Shown here piece by piece: positions 1,511 to 12,205 of a stretch of DNA of 33,553 bases. The stretch lies in the IMG/VR virus record IMGVR_UViG_3300034198_015384, positions 1 through 33,553 of that record; one strand, written 5' to 3'. This DNA comes from a virus. Positions within the stretch are counted from its first letter, which is position 1. Every line of letters begins with the position of its first letter. A model generated the notes under the pieces. The model ran no database searches, was not told the DNA's origin, and was given only the letters and a program-made list of their open reading frames with translations. A program made the translations under genes and the position numbers.

Positions 1511-1887
1511 TGTCACATTGGGCAGAAATTGATAATGATGGAATTGTTTTACGTGTAATTGTGGGCGACAATAGTGAGCCTGACGAAGGTTATCGCATTA
1601 TTACAGAAAATCTTGGTGGTACTTGGATTAAAACAAGTTACAATACTATAAAAGGAGTTCACACTTTAGGTGGTACGCCTTTTAGAGGAAACTATGCAAG
1701 CCCAGGCTATGTCTATGTTTCTGATATAGATATGTTTTTACCACAAAAACCTTTTCCTTCATGGGTTCCTGATTCTAAAAATTTTATTTGGAAAGCGCCT
1801 GTTGAAAAACCAGATTCTGGAATGTGGATGTGGGATGAGTCTGTAAGGAATTGGGTAGAGGGTGAATCGGGACCAATCGTTCAATAA
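1510..1887 (+). CDS. Small tail-fibre-associated phage protein
   Basis: A 125-residue protein starting 'MSHWAEIDNDGIVLRVIVGD', with a central 'GGTWIKTSYN' and a C-terminal half rich in Pro and Trp (KPFPSWVPDS, WKAPVEKPDSGMWMWDE). This layout resembles a conserved family of small proteins encoded beside tail fibres in marine and freshwater phages; I know the pattern but not an assigned biochemical role. The position directly after the fibre gene, with a one-base overlap, suggests a fibre tip, fibre chaperone or decoration protein. No membrane segment or signal peptide is seen. Confidence 0.7.
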   Translation: MSHWAEIDNDGIVLRVIVGDNSEPDEGYRIITENLGGTWIKTSYNTIKGVHTLGGTPFRGNYASPGYVYVSDIDMFLPQKPFPSWVPDSKNFIWKAPVEKPDSGMWMWDESVRNWVEGESGPIVQ

Positions 1888-2431
1888 AAACCGCTTAATT
1901 ACTTCGGGGTTTCCCAGAAGTGGTAATGTTTTTTTAAATTACTCTTTTAAATGCTTGTATTACCCAGATAAAGAAGTGTCGCCTCAAACTCATGTTACAA
2001 ACACATTTAAAGAAAATACTCATGTAATAACACCTATTAGGAATCCATTAGACTGTATTTCTTCTTGGAACCTATATCAAGAAAACTTTAACTATCCAAG
2101 AGACTTAAATAAAGACATTACTTATTATTTAAGGTTTTATTCTTATGTTTTAAATAACTTAACTAATATACTTTTACTTGACTTTAATGTTTTTAAAACA
2201 GACTTAGATTACATTACAAACAAAGTATTTAACTTTGTCAATATAAACCCTGTAAAAAAAGTTTCTTTAGAAGTAGTAAAGGATACAATGATAAAAGATA
2301 ATAAAGTAGATAATTTGCCTAGAAATAACCAATTATTTTTGACTGAAATAAAAAATACACTTCAAGAAATTCCTCAGATTACGGAGTGTTTAAACCTGTA
2401 CCTTGAATTAAAAGAAATGGAAAAAAAATGA
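1862..2431 (+). CDS. Sulfotransferase-like protein
   Basis: A 189-residue protein. Residues 16-22 read GFPRSGN, matching the 5'-phosphosulfate-binding loop of PAPS-dependent sulfotransferases (G-x-P-R-S-G-T/N). Residues 56-69 (ITPIRNPLDCISSW) match the 3'-phosphate-binding motif, with Arg60 and Ser67/Ser68. It would transfer sulfate from PAPS to a hydroxyl or amine on an unknown acceptor, possibly a surface glycan or a virion protein. The best start is GTG 1862, inside the end of the previous gene, with AAGGA about 11 bases upstream; there is no ATG before the P-loop. It is shorter than typical sulfotransferases (about 250-300 residues) and visibly more AT-rich than its neighbours, which suggests separate acquisition. 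It overlaps the APS-kinase gene by ATGA. The motifs support the fold well; the acceptor is unknown. Confidence 0.75.
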   Translation: MNRDQSFNKNRLITSGFPRSGNVFLNYSFKCLYYPDKEVSPQTHVTNTFKENTHVITPIRNPLDCISSWNLYQENFNYPRDLNKDITYYLRFYSYVLNNLTNILLLDFNVFKTDLDYITNKVFNFVNINPVKKVSLEVVKDTMIKDNKVDNLPRNNQLFLTEIKNTLQEIPQITECLNLYLELKEMEKK

Positions 2432-3180
2432 TTATTCAAATAATTGGTTTACCAGGCTCAGGAAAAACTACGTTAGCAAAAGTACTTGTTGACCGTATTA
2501 ATGCTGTCCATTTAAATGCTGATTATGTGCGCTCTACTATTAACTCTGATTTAGGCTTTAGCCCAGAAGACCGCATTGAGCATGCCCGTCGTATGGGTGA
2601 GATGGCTCGTATGCTTTCAGGTCAAGGACTTACAGTTGTAGTGGACTTTATCTGCCCAACACAAACTACACGCACCGTTTTTGGTAAGCCAGATATTTGT
2701 ATTTGGATGGACACTATTCAACAGGGGCGCTTTGAAGATACCAACAAGTTGTGGGAAGAACCTACAGAGTTTAACCACCGCTTTACCAGCTATGACAGTG
2801 AAACTCAAGCAAACCTTGTTATCGCTGTTAACGGTCTGCATGATTGGAAAACTCCAACTACTTTAATGCTAGGGCGCTATCAACCTTGGCATGAGGGGCA
2901 CCACGCCCTTTATGATGAGGCGCAAAAGCGCACTGGTCAGGTAATGCTAGGAGTAAGAAACACCCAAGGCACAAGTGAGAAAGACCCACTGTCTTTTGAT
3001 GAGGTCAAGCACTACATTAGTCAAGACCCACACATGAAAAACGCTATGGTGGTTAAGATGCCTAACATTACGAATATCGTCTACGGTAGAGACGTTGGAT
3101 ACAAGATTGAACAGGTGAAATTAGGTGATGAGATTGAAGCTATTAGCGCTACTCAAAAGCGTAAGGAGATGGGTATATGA
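2428..3180 (+). CDS. Bifunctional adenylylsulfate kinase / HxGH nucleotidyltransferase
   Basis: A 250-residue two-domain protein. Residues 1-~130 form an APS-kinase-like (CysC) domain: Walker A GLPGSGKTT at 7-15, then LNADYVR, DLGFSPEDRIEHARR and the 'VVVDFICPTQTTR' strand, all close to the CysC consensus. This domain would phosphorylate adenylylsulfate to PAPS. Residues ~143-250 form a nucleotidyltransferase: GRYQPWHEGHH (HEGH at 155-158) and C-terminal ISATQKRKEMG. That domain resembles NMN or cytidylyl transferases more than a classical ATP sulfurylase, so its substrate is uncertain; making APS from ATP and sulfate is an attractive but unproven possibility. It starts within the end of the sulfotransferase gene (ATGA), and a good AAGGAG lies at its own 3' end, serving the next frame. 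Confidence 0.85.
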   Translation: MIIQIIGLPGSGKTTLAKVLVDRINAVHLNADYVRSTINSDLGFSPEDRIEHARRMGEMARMLSGQGLTVVVDFICPTQTTRTVFGKPDICIWMDTIQQGRFEDTNKLWEEPTEFNHRFTSYDSETQANLVIAVNGLHDWKTPTTLMLGRYQPWHEGHHALYDEAQKRTGQVMLGVRNTQGTSEKDPLSFDEVKHYISQDPHMKNAMVVKMPNITNIVYGRDVGYKIEQVKLGDEIEAISATQKRKEMGI

Positions 3181-3501: not shown

Positions 3502-4035
3502 ATGCGTGGTTCAAAAGTACAAGGACGATTCAAAATTGACTTTGAAAATAAGTCAATGGAAGAAGGCGTTGTTGATGAACTCCGTGACCCAGTGGGTACG
3601 GAAGTTGATTGGTGGGCTTGGGACCCTGCAGCTTTAGCTGCTGATTACAACACCTGGGTAGACCCTATCTACGACGTCTCTAATCAAGAAGAGGGTCAAG
3701 GCCGTCGTTGGAATACCCCATTTAAAATGCCCGTAATTATGGCGCAACAACTTCGTGGTACCAATATTATGAACGAGCGCGGATTTTACGTTGTAGATAC
3801 CCTGCGGTTAGTTGTTGCTGTAAATGACGTTAATCGTCTTCTTCCTGGGATGCTTACTGACCCCAATGCTCACATCAAAGACCGTGCCGTATTTCAGGGT
3901 GAAGTGTTTGTTCCTACCCGTGTCCTTCCTCGTGGGCGCTATTCTAATTTTTATTCAGTAATAACTATTGACATGAACCTTGTAAACTCTGAAGAACTTG
4001 TGAACGACCCCCAGTTCCAGGCCTACGCAAACTAA
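3502..4035 (+). CDS. Probable virion structural protein, unknown family
   Basis: A 177-residue soluble protein with no membrane segment. Distinct features are 'EVDWWAWDP', 'RRWNTPFKMPVIMAQQLRGTN', and a C-terminal beta-rich half 'VFVPTRVLPRGRYSNFYSVITIDMNLV'. I do not recognise the family. It follows the first real intergenic gap after the sulfation cassette and has a GGGGA ribosome site 11 bases before ATG 3502, so it may begin a new transcription or translation unit. Its place upstream of neck and tail genes, and its beta-rich character, suggest a head-to-tail connector, head decoration or tail-completion role. This assignment rests on position only. Confidence 0.6.
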   Translation: MRGSKVQGRFKIDFENKSMEEGVVDELRDPVGTEVDWWAWDPAALAADYNTWVDPIYDVSNQEEGQGRRWNTPFKMPVIMAQQLRGTNIMNERGFYVVDTLRLVVAVNDVNRLLPGMLTDPNAHIKDRAVFQGEVFVPTRVLPRGRYSNFYSVITIDMNLVNSEELVNDPQFQAYAN

Positions 4036-8274: not shown

Positions 8275-8889
8275 ATGGCAACAATCAATAACCGTTCAAC
8301 ACTGTTGACCGACCCATTACGTAACTTTAGATTTTTAGTTACGTTTCAACCACAAGATAGCAACAACACTGCTCTCAAGGGTCTGAACAATGTGACACTT
8401 GGATTCACTTCGGTATCAGGATTGGCTGTTACAACAGACTCTATTCCTTACCGTGAAGGTGGATACAACACCACTGTTCACCAGATTCCTGGACAAACTT
8501 CTTTTACACCTCTCACACTTCAACGTGGCGTCATTCTGGGCACACGTCAGAATTGGGACTGGATGAAGAACTTATTTGCTACAGTGAACGCAACAGGCTC
8601 TACTCGTGCGGTTGACCAAAACTTCCGTTGCGATATAGAGATTGCAGTTCTTTCACACCCAATCCCAGGTTCACCTAACCAAAACGACACTGCAACAACG
8701 TCTACAGACCACGTTGCAATGCGCTTTAAGGTGTTCAATGCTTGGCCTACAACAGTTGCATACTCAGACCTCAATGCTGGTGACAACGCTCTTTACGTTG
8801 AGCAAATGACACTCGTACACGAAGGCTTTGATATCAACTGGGCAACAGACCTTTCAACTTCAGCATCATCAACTTACCCATCAGCATAA
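8275..8889 (+). CDS. Tail tube protein (T4 gp19-like)
   Basis: A 204-residue protein with 'DPLRNFRFLVTF', 'TSVSGLAVTTDSIPYREGGYNTTVHQIPGQTSFTPLTLQRG' spread over residues ~45-85, and 'WDWMKNLFATV'. This order (SGL, YREGG, PGxxxFxxLTLxRG) is the signature of contractile tail tube (gp19-type) proteins. It forms the inner tube through which DNA passes. It lies directly after the sheath, has a GAAGGAGATAG ribosome site, and is followed by the tail-assembly gene, the canonical order. Confidence 0.92.
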   Translation: MATINNRSTLLTDPLRNFRFLVTFQPQDSNNTALKGLNNVTLGFTSVSGLAVTTDSIPYREGGYNTTVHQIPGQTSFTPLTLQRGVILGTRQNWDWMKNLFATVNATGSTRAVDQNFRCDIEIAVLSHPIPGSPNQNDTATTSTDHVAMRFKVFNAWPTTVAYSDLNAGDNALYVEQMTLVHEGFDINWATDLSTSASSTYPSA

Positions 8890-8903: not shown

Positions 8904-9710
8904 ATGACGAAAACAATTAGTGCAGCGGTCAATCCCGCATTGGCAAACAAACTATTAGAACAAGCTACAGTTGAAAAGCCAGAAGAAAAAGAAGTAAAAG
9001 TCCTACCTCCTTTGGACACACATGTGACACTCCCTGGCGGGTACCTAACGCCTGCCGGGGAGCTCATCACAACCGCAGAGGTTCGTGAGCTCACAGGCAA
9101 AGACGAAGAAGCTATCTCTCGTGCATCATCTACAGGAAAAGCGCTTATCACTATTCTCAATCGTGGAACAGTAAAGATTGGCGACCTACCTGCAGATGAA
9201 GCCTTGTTAGACCAGCTTTTATCTGGAGACAGAGATGCTCTCCTATTAGCAATCCTTAAAGTTACATTTGGAAATATCTCTACGCTTCCTTCTTATTGCG
9301 CTACTTGCGATGAAGTTAAAGAGGTAGATGTTGATTTAGATGAAGATATTAAAGTCAAGGTAATGCTTGACCATAATGAAAGAGTCTTTACAGTAGAAGG
9401 AAAGAACCAAGAATATACAGTTCAACTTCCTACAGGACGAGCTCAAAAAGAACTTATCAATAACGCAGATAAAACAATCTCAGAATTAAATACAATCCTA
9501 TTGGAAAATACAATTATTAAGATTGGTAATGCTCCAGTAGTTAGCAAACAACAAGTCCAGAACTTAGGTGTATTGGACCGCAAAAAGGTTATTGAAGAAA
9601 TCAATAAACGTTTTGTTGGGCCACAATTTGATGACCTAAGCGTTACTTGCCCTGAGTGTGAAGGCGAGGTACGTGTCCCTATTAATTTAGGCGCTATGTT
9701 TCGTTTCTAG
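8904..9710 (+). CDS. Tail assembly / T4 gp26-type baseplate hub-assembly protein with zinc knuckles
   Basis: A 268-residue protein. N-terminal ~45 residues are charged and probably flexible; then 'VTLPGGYLTPAGELITTAEVRELTGKDEEAISRA' resembles phage tail-assembly chaperone-like proteins. Two CxxC pairs (Cys132/135 in CATC, Cys249/252 in CPEC) can form one zinc site, as in gp26-like hub-assembly proteins. The position between tail tube and tape measure is where tail assembly chaperones lie in most tailed phages. The frame ends 'MFRF' at TAG 9708-9710, but conserved-looking coding continues in the +1 frame for 44 residues. I think this protein is partly made as a frameshifted longer form. Confidence 0.75.
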   Translation: MTKTISAAVNPALANKLLEQATVEKPEEKEVKVLPPLDTHVTLPGGYLTPAGELITTAEVRELTGKDEEAISRASSTGKALITILNRGTVKIGDLPADEALLDQLLSGDRDALLLAILKVTFGNISTLPSYCATCDEVKEVDVDLDEDIKVKVMLDHNERVFTVEGKNQEYTVQLPTGRAQKELINNADKTISELNTILLENTIIKIGNAPVVSKQQVQNLGVLDRKKVIEEINKRFVGPQFDDLSVTCPECEGEVRVPINLGAMFRF

Positions 9711-9837
9711 TATTAGCCCATTTGTGCAGTTACTTGCAGAATGGCGAGGCTTAGCAGAAACGTACACAGGCTGGAACTTAACAGAGATACAGAACCTTTC
9801 GTACAGAGAAAGACATAATTGGTTAGAGATAAGGTAA
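9703..9837 (+). CDS. Probable +1-frameshift extension of the tail assembly protein
   Basis: The 143 bases between the previous stop and the tape measure have no good independent start, but the +1 frame is open to TAA 9835-9837. It encodes 44 helical, Trp-rich residues including 'LLAEWRGLAETYTGWNLTEI' and 'NLSYRERHNWLEI', very like the second component of tail assembly chaperones (W-T/S-x-x-E-I-x-N-L-x-x-R-E-x-x-x-W-L). A UUU-C at 9699-9702 would allow tRNA-Phe to slip from UUU to UUC (+1) three codons before the UAG stop. A GTG at 9724 lacks a ribosome site. Coding status is well supported; the exact shift site is inferred. Confidence 0.65.
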   Translation, partial: VSSISPFVQLLAEWRGLAETYTGWNLTEIQNLSYRERHNWLEIR

Positions 9838-9853
9838 GTCAGAGAGGAATAGC

Positions 9854-12205
9854 ATGAGTGTTGTAACAAACATCAAAGCGATGTCCTCTGGCATTGGCGA
9901 CCTTAATAAGCAAGTAAAAGAACTTCTTGGCAATGTTAAATCCCTTGCTGGAGTAACCACCCAAAGCCTTGGCGGTGTTAAAGGCATGCTCATGGGCGGT
10001 GGAGCTCGTGGTATTGGCTTTGGACAACAAGGTAATGTCATGGGCGGTTCTCTTGCAAGTTTCTCAACTCCTCAAATAGCAGTAGCTTCTATGGCTGTTC
10101 AAGGCGCTGGAAACATGATTCAAGGCGCAGCACAGTTGGCTATGGCACCTGTTGCAATGGCGTATGGCGCAACCATGGATAGCAGTGGCATTGTTAACAG
10201 AGCAAGCACGTATAACAACGCAGCTCTTATGTCTGGTACCGGCAATAGAACAACAATTGCTAAAGCAACTTTTTCTGCTTTAAGAGGTGGTTTGACTGGG
10301 GTTGGTTCAGATGCTCAAGTTGCATCTATCCTTGCTGGCAGTGGCTACACAGCAGGCACAGCTAACTATCTTGGAGCTGCAGCTCAAGTAGGAGGAGCGG
10401 CTCGTTACTTAAACATGGGTAACCAACAAGCATCTGCAGCAATTGCTGGAATGCAATCCGGAGCTTTTGCAGCTAATGCATATCAGTATGGCATCACCAC
10501 TATGAATGCTGATGGAAGTTTTAAGAGTACTGGTGACATCTCTAAACAAATAATGAAAACCTTTATGCCAACAGATGCTAAAGGAGTAAGTTTAGTAACT
10601 GGTAAAAAAGTTACAGCAGAAACAATCAATACATCCTTTCTTAAAGGAAACCTTGGTCCAATTCTTGAAGGACTAGGACTTTCTGCAGACCAACAAAAAC
10701 TTGTTAGACAAGCAATGGTTGACACAGTTAGTGGTAAAAATCCTGATTTAGCAAGTAAAACCGCAAATGAAAACCCAGCATCAGCAGCATTGCGTATGAA
10801 CACTTCTCAAACAATGATTCAACAAGCTTCTGAAAAAAACACTATTAAGGGGCTTAATGCTGCAGCAACAACTGTTGAAATTTTTAATAACAATATGAAA
10901 GATGTTATTTCTTCCATGGCTTTATTTAAAGGCTACTTGGATGGAATGAGCGGAACTAATGCTGGTAAAGGAATTAAAGCCGGAGCTCACTCTGCTGTTA
11001 GTGGAATTAAAAACTTTCTTGGTGGAGCGTTAAAGGTTGCTGGAGCTGTTGCTCTTGGAGCACTTATGCTTGGTGGAGGTAACCCAGGTTATGGTGGTTC
11101 CTTTACTCGTAAAGGAGCACGTGGCGGAGGTACCCCTAACTCACCCGTAACAGGTTTACAAACAGCGGGGTATGGGGCAGTAGACCAATCAGGTATTTGG
11201 GCATCAACAGGAAATCAACATAAAGGAGTTGACTACGCAGCTCCACTAGGTACGCCTGTACATGCAACAATGCCTGGAATTGTTTCTGGAGATTCAATCA
11301 GCAGTGACTACGGTAATGCTGTGTTAATTGACCATCCAAATGGCTACTCAACTTTGTACGCACATTTAAAAAACAAAGAAGTAAGCCCAGGAAGTCAAGT
11401 TAGTGCTGGACAAGAAATTGGAAAAGTAGGTCAGTCAGGAAATACTACTGGACCAGGTTTGCACTACGAAGTCCGAAAAGGAAAAAACAACCCAGTAAAC
11501 CCAGCAGAACTTGGTGCTATGGGTGGCTCACCTTTGGGCATGGCAATAACTATGTCTAATAAAGGTTCTAAAAATGCTAAAACTTCTGGCGCGTCTTTAA
11601 AAATTGGTGGAGCACCTGCAGGAAGTAACCTTGCTGCAACAGATGCAAAGTTAATGGCGGTGCTTCAAAAAGCAGGGTTTACTGGTGACGCTTTAACTAA
11701 TGCGTACAACGTAGCAAAGGCAGAGTCTGGTGGACGTCCAGGTGCTTTAAACCCCAACGCTAGTAGCGGCGATTATTCTATGGGCCTATTCCAAATCAAT
11801 ATGATTGGAAGTCTCGGTACCGCAAGAAACGCTCAATATTTAAAACAATATAAAGACATTGGTTACACAGGTCCAGAAAGTTTGTATGACCCAGCTATCA
11901 ATGCAAAAATTGCCTACGACATATCTAAAGGCGGAACTAAGTGGAGCGATGCTTGGGTAAATACTTCTAGAAAACTTGGAATTGGTGGCGGAACTCCCGG
12001 CTATGGAGCAAGTGTTCACAGCCCTGTTGCCAATGACACGGTTCTTGGAGCTGCAACAGTAAACCAAGGAACTTCTAATTCAAAAAATGTTTATATCACA
12101 GTTAAAATTGACCAAGCAAATGAAGCAAGCGCAATAACATTTGCTAAAAAAGTACAAAGCATTCTTGATAACAAAAACAACAACCACTTGATTGGAAGCT
12201 CCTAA
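9854..12205 (+). CDS. Tail tape measure protein with M23 peptidase-like and lysozyme-like domains
   Basis: A 783-residue protein. The first ~440 residues are Ala/Gly-rich, helical and partly hydrophobic, as in tape measures, which set tail length and enter the host envelope. Residues ~445-555 are an M23/LytM-like domain: HKGVD (His456, Asp460), YAHL (His504) and GLHYEV (His537). The first His of the usual HxH is Gly535 here. Residues ~600-720 are a lysozyme/SLT-like domain: AESGG with likely catalytic Glu624, then 'SSGDYSMGLFQIN'. The hydrolases would open peptidoglycan locally during DNA entry. The C-terminus is beta-like (NVYITVKIDQANEASAITFA). AGAGAGGA precedes the ATG; the next gene overlaps by one base. 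Confidence 0.88.
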   Translation: MSVVTNIKAMSSGIGDLNKQVKELLGNVKSLAGVTTQSLGGVKGMLMGGGARGIGFGQQGNVMGGSLASFSTPQIAVASMAVQGAGNMIQGAAQLAMAPVAMAYGATMDSSGIVNRASTYNNAALMSGTGNRTTIAKATFSALRGGLTGVGSDAQVASILAGSGYTAGTANYLGAAAQVGGAARYLNMGNQQASAAIAGMQSGAFAANAYQYGITTMNADGSFKSTGDISKQIMKTFMPTDAKGVSLVTGKKVTAETINTSFLKGNLGPILEGLGLSADQQKLVRQAMVDTVSGKNPDLASKTANENPASAALRMNTSQTMIQQASEKNTIKGLNAAATTVEIFNNNMKDVISSMALFKGYLDGMSGTNAGKGIKAGAHSAVSGIKNFLGGALKVAGAVALGALMLGGGNPGYGGSFTRKGARGGGTPNSPVTGLQTAGYGAVDQSGIWASTGNQHKGVDYAAPLGTPVHATMPGIVSGDSISSDYGNAVLIDHPNGYSTLYAHLKNKEVSPGSQVSAGQEIGKVGQSGNTTGPGLHYEVRKGKNNPVNPAELGAMGGSPLGMAITMSNKGSKNAKTSGASLKIGGAPAGSNLAATDAKLMAVLQKAGFTGDALTNAYNVAKAESGGRPGALNPNASSGDYSMGLFQINMIGSLGTARNAQYLKQYKDIGYTGPESLYDPAINAKIAYDISKGGTKWSDAWVNTSRKLGIGGGTPGYGASVHSPVANDTVLGAATVNQGTSNSKNVYITVKIDQANEASAITFAKKVQSILDNKNNNHLIGSS

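What the first reader, a model, noticed from the sequence alone, without database searches (positions are those of the whole stretch)
9691..9853. Likely +1 programmed frameshift in the tail assembly protein
Between the tail-assembly stop and the tape measure start, the +1 frame encodes 44 residues with the tail-assembly-chaperone extension pattern (LLAEWRGLAETYTGWNLTEI, YRERHNWL), lacks its own ribosome site, and overlaps the upstream gene end. UUU-C at 9699-9702 fits a +1 slip of tRNA-Phe shortly before UAG. Most tail chaperone shifts are -1; +1 (or -2) is rarer, and here it appends to a gp26-like zinc protein rather than a classical gpG.
Basis: partly seen in the sequence, partly recalled or inferred. 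Interest (0 to 1): 0.7.

Follow-up and report, generated by a model that had tools for sequence, protein, structure and literature searches.

The report
Frameshift makes long tail-assembly chaperone
A virus of lake bacteria very probably makes a second, longer version of a tail-building helper protein by having ribosomes skip one base at a UUU-C site; the long-and-short pair is a known phage trick, but the forward skip and the folded RNA around it are an unusual variant for this protein family.

Summary
The 0-frame gene (8904-9710) ends TTT CGT TTC TAG. The +1 frame is open from 9691 to 9834, with its stop at 9835-9837. In 100 unique relatives the shift site is TTT-C at the same place, and the +1 frame evolves as coding sequence (dN/dS 0.17, no stops; the other frames are full of stops). 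TTT-C is also kept in Streptomyces phages and in 64-69% GC genomes whose Phe codon is otherwise nearly always TTC. No conserved start codon or ribosome site exists.

The gene is a tail assembly chaperone. It belongs to PF12322 (T4 gp26 and gp51), and its predicted fold is nearest to HK97 tail assembly chaperone. Its +1 extension matches the -1-frame extension after gp26 in cyanophages, KVP40 and others, which matches the C-terminus of T4 gp51. So gp26-like = short form and gp26+extension = long form. That T4 itself splits them into two genes is already published (Vladimirov 2022, known here only through citing papers).

New here, as far as I could find: a +1 shift at UUU_C instead of -1 in this chaperone family, and a covarying RNA hairpin whose 3' arm contains the shift site. 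Frameshifting itself was not measured. New variant of a known kind.

The parts
8904..9710 (+). short form (TAC-N, gpG-like; T4 gp26 family PF12322), 268 aa, two Cys pairs
   Evidence: PF12322 1.2e-10, phrog_150 9.3e-10; AF2 model pLDDT 87.7, best PDB matches HK97 tail assembly chaperone 2ob9 Z 7.6 and YqbN 3klu Z 7.4 over residues 24-129
9699..9702 (+). UUU_C +1 shift site: P-site tRNA-Phe moves from UUU to UUC
   Evidence: invariant in 95/95 freshwater regions, 4/4 Streptomyces phages, 5/5 loci from bacterial genomes, and in Bacillus phage SP-15; Phe266 TTT 54/54
9703..9837 (+). +1-frame extension (TAC-C, gpT-like), 44 aa plus TAA stop
   Evidence: dN/dS 0.17; matches the -1-frame extension after gp26 of cyanophages/KVP40 etc. 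(E 1.8e-5, 0/200 shuffles), which matches the C-terminus of T4 gp51 (E 4e-10)
9657..9710 (+). conserved RNA hairpin across the end of the short form; 5' arm GAGGUA(A), 3' arm contains UUUC
   Evidence: covariation score 0.174 vs 0.106 in shuffles, 0/500; column pair 24-33 UA:20 CG:9 GC:5 AU:4; RNAalifold, consensus -16 to -19 kcal/mol; fold z about -2 here vs about -0.3 elsewhere in the gene
8275..8889 (+). tail tube protein (T4 gp19-like), upstream neighbour
   Evidence: PF06841 9e-27
9854..12205 (+). tape measure protein with M23 peptidase and lysozyme-like domains, downstream neighbour
   Evidence: phrog_167 5.7e-26, PF01551 9.2e-31, PF18896 8.6e-17

Best explanation
This is the G/GT-type tail assembly chaperone gene of a contractile-tailed phage. 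Most ribosomes stop at UAG 9708 and make the short chaperone (268 aa). A minority, when tRNA-Phe sits on UUU 9699-9701 in the P site, slip forward one base onto UUC and read on in the +1 frame, making a 310-aa long form with a helical C-terminal extension. By analogy with lambda gpG/gpGT, the short form coats the tape measure protein and the extension of the long form recruits tail tube subunits, so the ratio set by the slip matters. A conserved hairpin that holds the slip site in its 3' arm probably tunes the event. Shown here: homology, predicted fold, coding in +1, invariance of UUU-C, hairpin covariation. Inferred: that slippage occurs, its rate, the re-pairing step, the role of the hairpin, and the binding roles.
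For: Open +1 frame and TTT-C in all relatives. dN/dS 0.17. TTT kept where TTC rules: in the TAC genes of three high-GC loci every other Phe codon is TTC (15 of 15 in L237-L239) and TTT appears only at the slip; pooled TTT 15 vs TTC 117 over five loci with 5/5 TTT at the slip; in the Streptomyces phages TTT is 11-28% of Phe codons but 4/4 at the slip. The next 0-frame residue alternates Arg/Gln (Leu in two genomes) while the first base C never changes. The second candidate (TTC before TAG) is variable and absent in the Streptomyces group. TAC fold. Extension homology chain to gp51 C-terminus. No conserved start. Gene order tube - TAC - tape measure.
Against: No expression data. The direct window-group extension vs gp51 comparison is weak alone (E 0.022), though in the right register and above 200/200 shuffles. 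PDB Z 7.6 is under the aligner's comfort line of 8, but both top hits are chaperones (YqbN as such from own knowledge) and the next is 4.2. The +1 frame could in principle be reached by -2 slippage or transcriptional slippage.
Confidence: 0.92

Rival explanations
1. The +1 frame is a separate small gene started at its own codon (e.g. GTG 9724) or by reinitiation after the UAG.
For: GenBank records of BRock, GiJojo, LuckySocke and of P-SSM2, KVP40, phiM12 annotate the extension as a stand-alone ORF; several -1-type phages have an ATG just after the stop.
Against: GTG 9724 is in one of 99 regions; 45 of 99 have no start codon in the first 20 codons, and SD-like matches are at noise level. A separate gene would not explain the invariant UUU-C. 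T4 gp51 carries the same extension fused to the core.
Confidence: 0.04
2. The frame is reached by a -2 ribosomal shift or by transcriptional slippage rather than a +1 slip.
For: The resulting protein frame is the same; Mu-like TACs are reported to use -2 (own knowledge).
Against: A -2 move from UUU or CRN has no matching codon; there is no long homopolymer for polymerase slippage (UUUC only); invariance of the base after UUU is predicted only by UUU to UUC re-pairing.
Confidence: 0.04
3. Sequencing or assembly indel that splits one long gene.
For: A single missing base would give the same picture in one genome.
Against: The identical layout in 100 unique regions from many metagenomes, isolate phages and bacterial isolate genomes.
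Confidence: 0.005

Closest known systems
T4-like phage tail assembly chaperones gp26 / gp51 (Vladimirov, Gautam & Davidson 2022, cited in PMC12846349 and PMC10885494)
   Same: Same protein family PF12322; short and long forms; the same C-terminal extension
   Different: T4 uses two separate genes; many relatives have a -1 layout on U_UUU_UUC; the window group uses +1 on UUU_C
lambda gpG/gpGT and HK97 gp13/14 tail assembly chaperones
   Same: Gene position before the tape measure gene; frameshift-made C-terminal extension; N-domain fold (2ob9 Z 7.6)
   Different: Those shift -1; no sequence similarity was found by the searches run; the window protein has two Cys pairs and a longer core
Halovirus HSTV-2 tail chaperone (likely +1; Atkins 2016, PMC5009743)
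   Same: Likely +1 shift in a myovirus tail chaperone gene
   Different: Archaeal virus; site and protein family not compared here
UUU_CGN +1 sites of influenza A PA-X and plant amalgaviruses (PMC5052127)
   Same: P-site tRNA-Phe UUU to UUC; in the window the A-site codon is CGU as in influenza
   Different: Eukaryotic ribosomes; here the A-site codon may also be CAR or CUC, and codon rarity is not consistent; a hairpin embeds the site

Membership tests
Tail assembly chaperone (G/GT type) | gene directly upstream of the tape measure gene, downstream of the tube gene | tested here: met
   tube PF06841 at 8275-8889, tape measure phrog_167 at 9854-12205
Tail assembly chaperone (G/GT type) | N-terminal domain with the TAC fold | tested here: met
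   2ob9 Z 7.6 and 3klu Z 7.4, next hit 4.2; Foldseek probability 0.96/0.92 for 2ob9 chains. Predicted model, Z below 8
Tail assembly chaperone (G/GT type) | conserved alternate-frame extension reached near the 3' end | tested here: met
Tail assembly chaperone (G/GT type) | both forms made in a fixed ratio; bind tape measure and tube; absent from virion | not testable with these tools
   needs proteomics and binding assays
T4 gp26/gp51 family (PF12322) | match above the curated cut-off | tested here: met
   41.9 bits vs 24.5
T4 gp26/gp51 family (PF12322) | extension homologous to the C-terminus of gp51 | tested here: met
   via -1-frame extensions: E 1.8e-5 then 4e-10; direct E 0.022; 0 of 200/200/100 shuffles
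T4 gp26/gp51 family (PF12322) | two separate genes, as in T4 | tested here: not met
   one gene with an extension frame in the window (a partial genome); isolate relatives BRock and GiJojo have one PF12322 gene, T4 has two
UUU_CGN type +1 shift site | UUU in P site followed by C | tested here: met
UUU_CGN type +1 shift site | A-site codon CGN | tested here: inconclusive
   window CGT; relatives CGN or CAR, two genomes CTC
prfB (RF2) type +1 site | CUU UGA with Shine-Dalgarno 3 nt upstream | tested here: not met
   the A-site is a sense codon, no stop; no SD next to the site

The most novel reading that the evidence does not exclude
Within one chaperone family the direction of frameshifting has switched: U_UUU_UUC read in one phase gives -1 (cyanophages, KVP40, rhizobial phages), UUU_C read in another gives +1 (actinobacterial and freshwater phages; Bacillus SP-15 has UUU_UUU_C), and T4 abandoned shifting by having two genes. 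The +1 branch has a hairpin that embeds the slip codon itself, a stimulator layout not described for +1 sites as far as I know.
Probability: 0.5. Interest if true: 0.62.

Novelty: new variant of a known kind. Interest (0 to 1): 0.5.

Why it matters
It corrects the annotation of a whole clade of phages and of tail clusters in actinobacterial genome records, where the extension is missed or called a separate hypothetical protein. It offers a compact natural series (no shift, -1, +1) in one protein family for asking how shift direction evolves, and a bacterial UUU_C +1 site comparable with the influenza PA-X and amalgavirus sites.

Tried and rejected
Independent initiation and coding in the other frames in the window group (stops everywhere) were rejected. 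A downstream pseudoknot or hairpin as stimulator: RNAalifold finds no conserved structure downstream of the site, only the hairpin around it, although single-sequence z-scores there are mildly low. A Shine-Dalgarno-like stimulator next to the site was not found. Direct profile comparison of the window core with single T4 gp26 or gp51 sequences was uninformative; Pfam was needed. Vladimirov 2022 could not be read. I first thought the gp26/gp51 split was unrecognised; citing papers show it is published.

Full report
What was checked. The tape measure gene starts at 9854 with its own ribosome site.

Relatives. Two scans of IMG/VR and searches of isolate phages gave 164 loci with 100 unique regions. 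In 99 of them, in-frame TTT followed by C lies three or four codons before the 0-frame stop codon, and the +1 frame from there encodes the same extension (core motif EW..L...Y.GW.L.EI..LS.RER.NWL). The remaining one (L053) has TTT-C too but has lost its stop. Streptomyces phages BRock, GiJojo, pSt2308 and LuckySocke, only about 35% identical in the core, keep CTG TTT CRN and the +1 extension; GenBank lists the extension as a separate hypothetical protein or not at all. Five loci in bacterial genome records (Actinomadura, Saccharothrix, Nonomuraea, Streptomyces, and a MAG labelled Bacillota) also have TTT-C and the extension, at 64-69% GC. There TTT is rare: in three of the TAC genes all 15 other Phe codons are TTC. 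This is the strongest single argument that UUU-C is under selection as a site.

Coding. Beyond the 0-frame stop, the +1 frame has dN/dS 0.17 and no stops in 84 unique sequences; the other two frames give 1.1 and 1.7 and are full of stops. Independent initiation is not supported.

Site. Phe266 is TTT in 54 of 54 sequences, while other conserved Phe columns contain some TTC; the next residue switches between Arg (CGN) and Gln (CAR), so the C is kept although the amino acid is not. The other candidate, the codon before the stop, varies and is different in the Streptomyces group. The natural reading is P-site tRNA-Phe moving from UUU to UUC, as proposed for influenza PA-X and amalgaviruses (PMC5052127).

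RNA. Single-sequence folding shows an island of stability around the site. Forty-seven aligned sequences show a hairpin: GAGGUA(A) pairs with UURUUUC and an upper stem closes an 8-nt loop. The pair between the third base of codon 259 (mostly Pro) and the third base of codon 262 occurs as UA, CG, GC and AU; eight further sequences have C-C there and may pair in a shifted register (my reading). The covariation score exceeds 500 of 500 shuffles and every slid register. The lower stem is invariant or varies on one side only, so it is supported by synonymous conservation (Glu255 always GAG) rather than covariation. Much of it is seen in the Streptomyces group but it is not obvious in the Nonomuraea locus, so it may tune rather than enable the shift. 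How a hairpin that must be unwound as the site enters the ribosome would act is not explained.

What the protein is. Pfam assigns it to T4_baseplate, PF12322, which holds both T4 gp26 and T4 gp51. An AlphaFold2 model of the 0-frame protein (pLDDT 87.7) matches BFVD 'baseplate hub assembly' proteins over its length. In PDB its residues 24-129 match the HK97 tail assembly chaperone (Z 7.6) and YqbN (Z 7.4), with the next hit at 4.2. So the gp26 family is a tail assembly chaperone family by fold. Searching complete phage genomes, T4, Aeromonas 31, an RB43-like phage and Campylobacter CP220 have two PF12322 genes. P-SSM2, S-PM2, HTVC008M, Cr30, Vi01, phiM12, phiM9, W-14, KVP40 and ACP17 have one, each followed in the -1 frame by an extension, mostly at T_TTT_TTY. 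That -1 extension matches the last 50 residues of gp51 (E 4e-10), and the window's +1 extension matches the -1 extension (E 1.8e-5). GenBank notes for KVP40, P-SSM2 and phiM12 already call the small ORF gp51-like. Bacillus phage SP-15 has UUU_UUU_C with a T-like frame in +1.

Prior knowledge. Atkins 2016 (PMC5009743) says G-T frameshifting is conserved except in T4. A 2025 paper (PMC12846349) and the PRFect paper (PMC10885494) cite Vladimirov et al. 2022 for T4-like TAC genes being two separate genes and for -1 poly-T sites in T4-like TAC genes. I could not read that paper. So the family assignment is not new. PRFect's training set also held 350 forward sites, so +1 shifts in actinophage chaperone genes of other families are not unheard of. 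The +1 UUU_C version in the T4-type family with its hairpin is the part I could not find described in the library searched.

Verdict. It is a new variant of a known kind of frameshifted chaperone gene, strongly supported by comparison, not yet measured.

Noticed in passing
L237:2902-3828, L238, L239, L240 (and neighbours): Actinobacterial genome records (Actinomadura, Saccharothrix, Nonomuraea, Streptomyces) hold this chaperone with the same TTT-C +1 layout; beside it lie sheath- and tube-like genes in L237 and L239. Prophage, tailocin or injection system not determined.
   Followed up: partly
L232 (Bacillus phage SP-15, KT624200.1 from 34990): T4-type chaperone ends GAA TTT TTT CAC ... TAA and a T-like extension lies in +1, so the U6C run is read in the other phase from the -1 phages.
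   Followed up: partly
L233, L234 (Campylobacter phage CP220, FN667788.1 from 11161 and from 2349): Two PF12322 genes far apart, one with a gp51-like C-terminal extension: a T4-style split outside the T4 group.
   Followed up: no
L053 around 3780-3830: A relative with TTT CGC TTT TAT: the 0-frame stop is lost by one base, so the short form would run about 10 codons further; variant or sequencing error.
   Followed up: no
window 9297-9308 and 9648-9659; L028: The chaperone has two Cys pairs (132/135 and 249/252); L028 in the protein alignment has lost them while keeping the frameshift site.
   Followed up: no
window 9854-12205: Tape measure protein carries both an M23 peptidase and a lysozyme-like (SLT_3) domain.
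   Followed up: no
window 1862-2431 and 2428-3180: By eye a sulfotransferase-like protein and a kinase/nucleotidyltransferase-like protein among tail genes; not tested.
   Followed up: no
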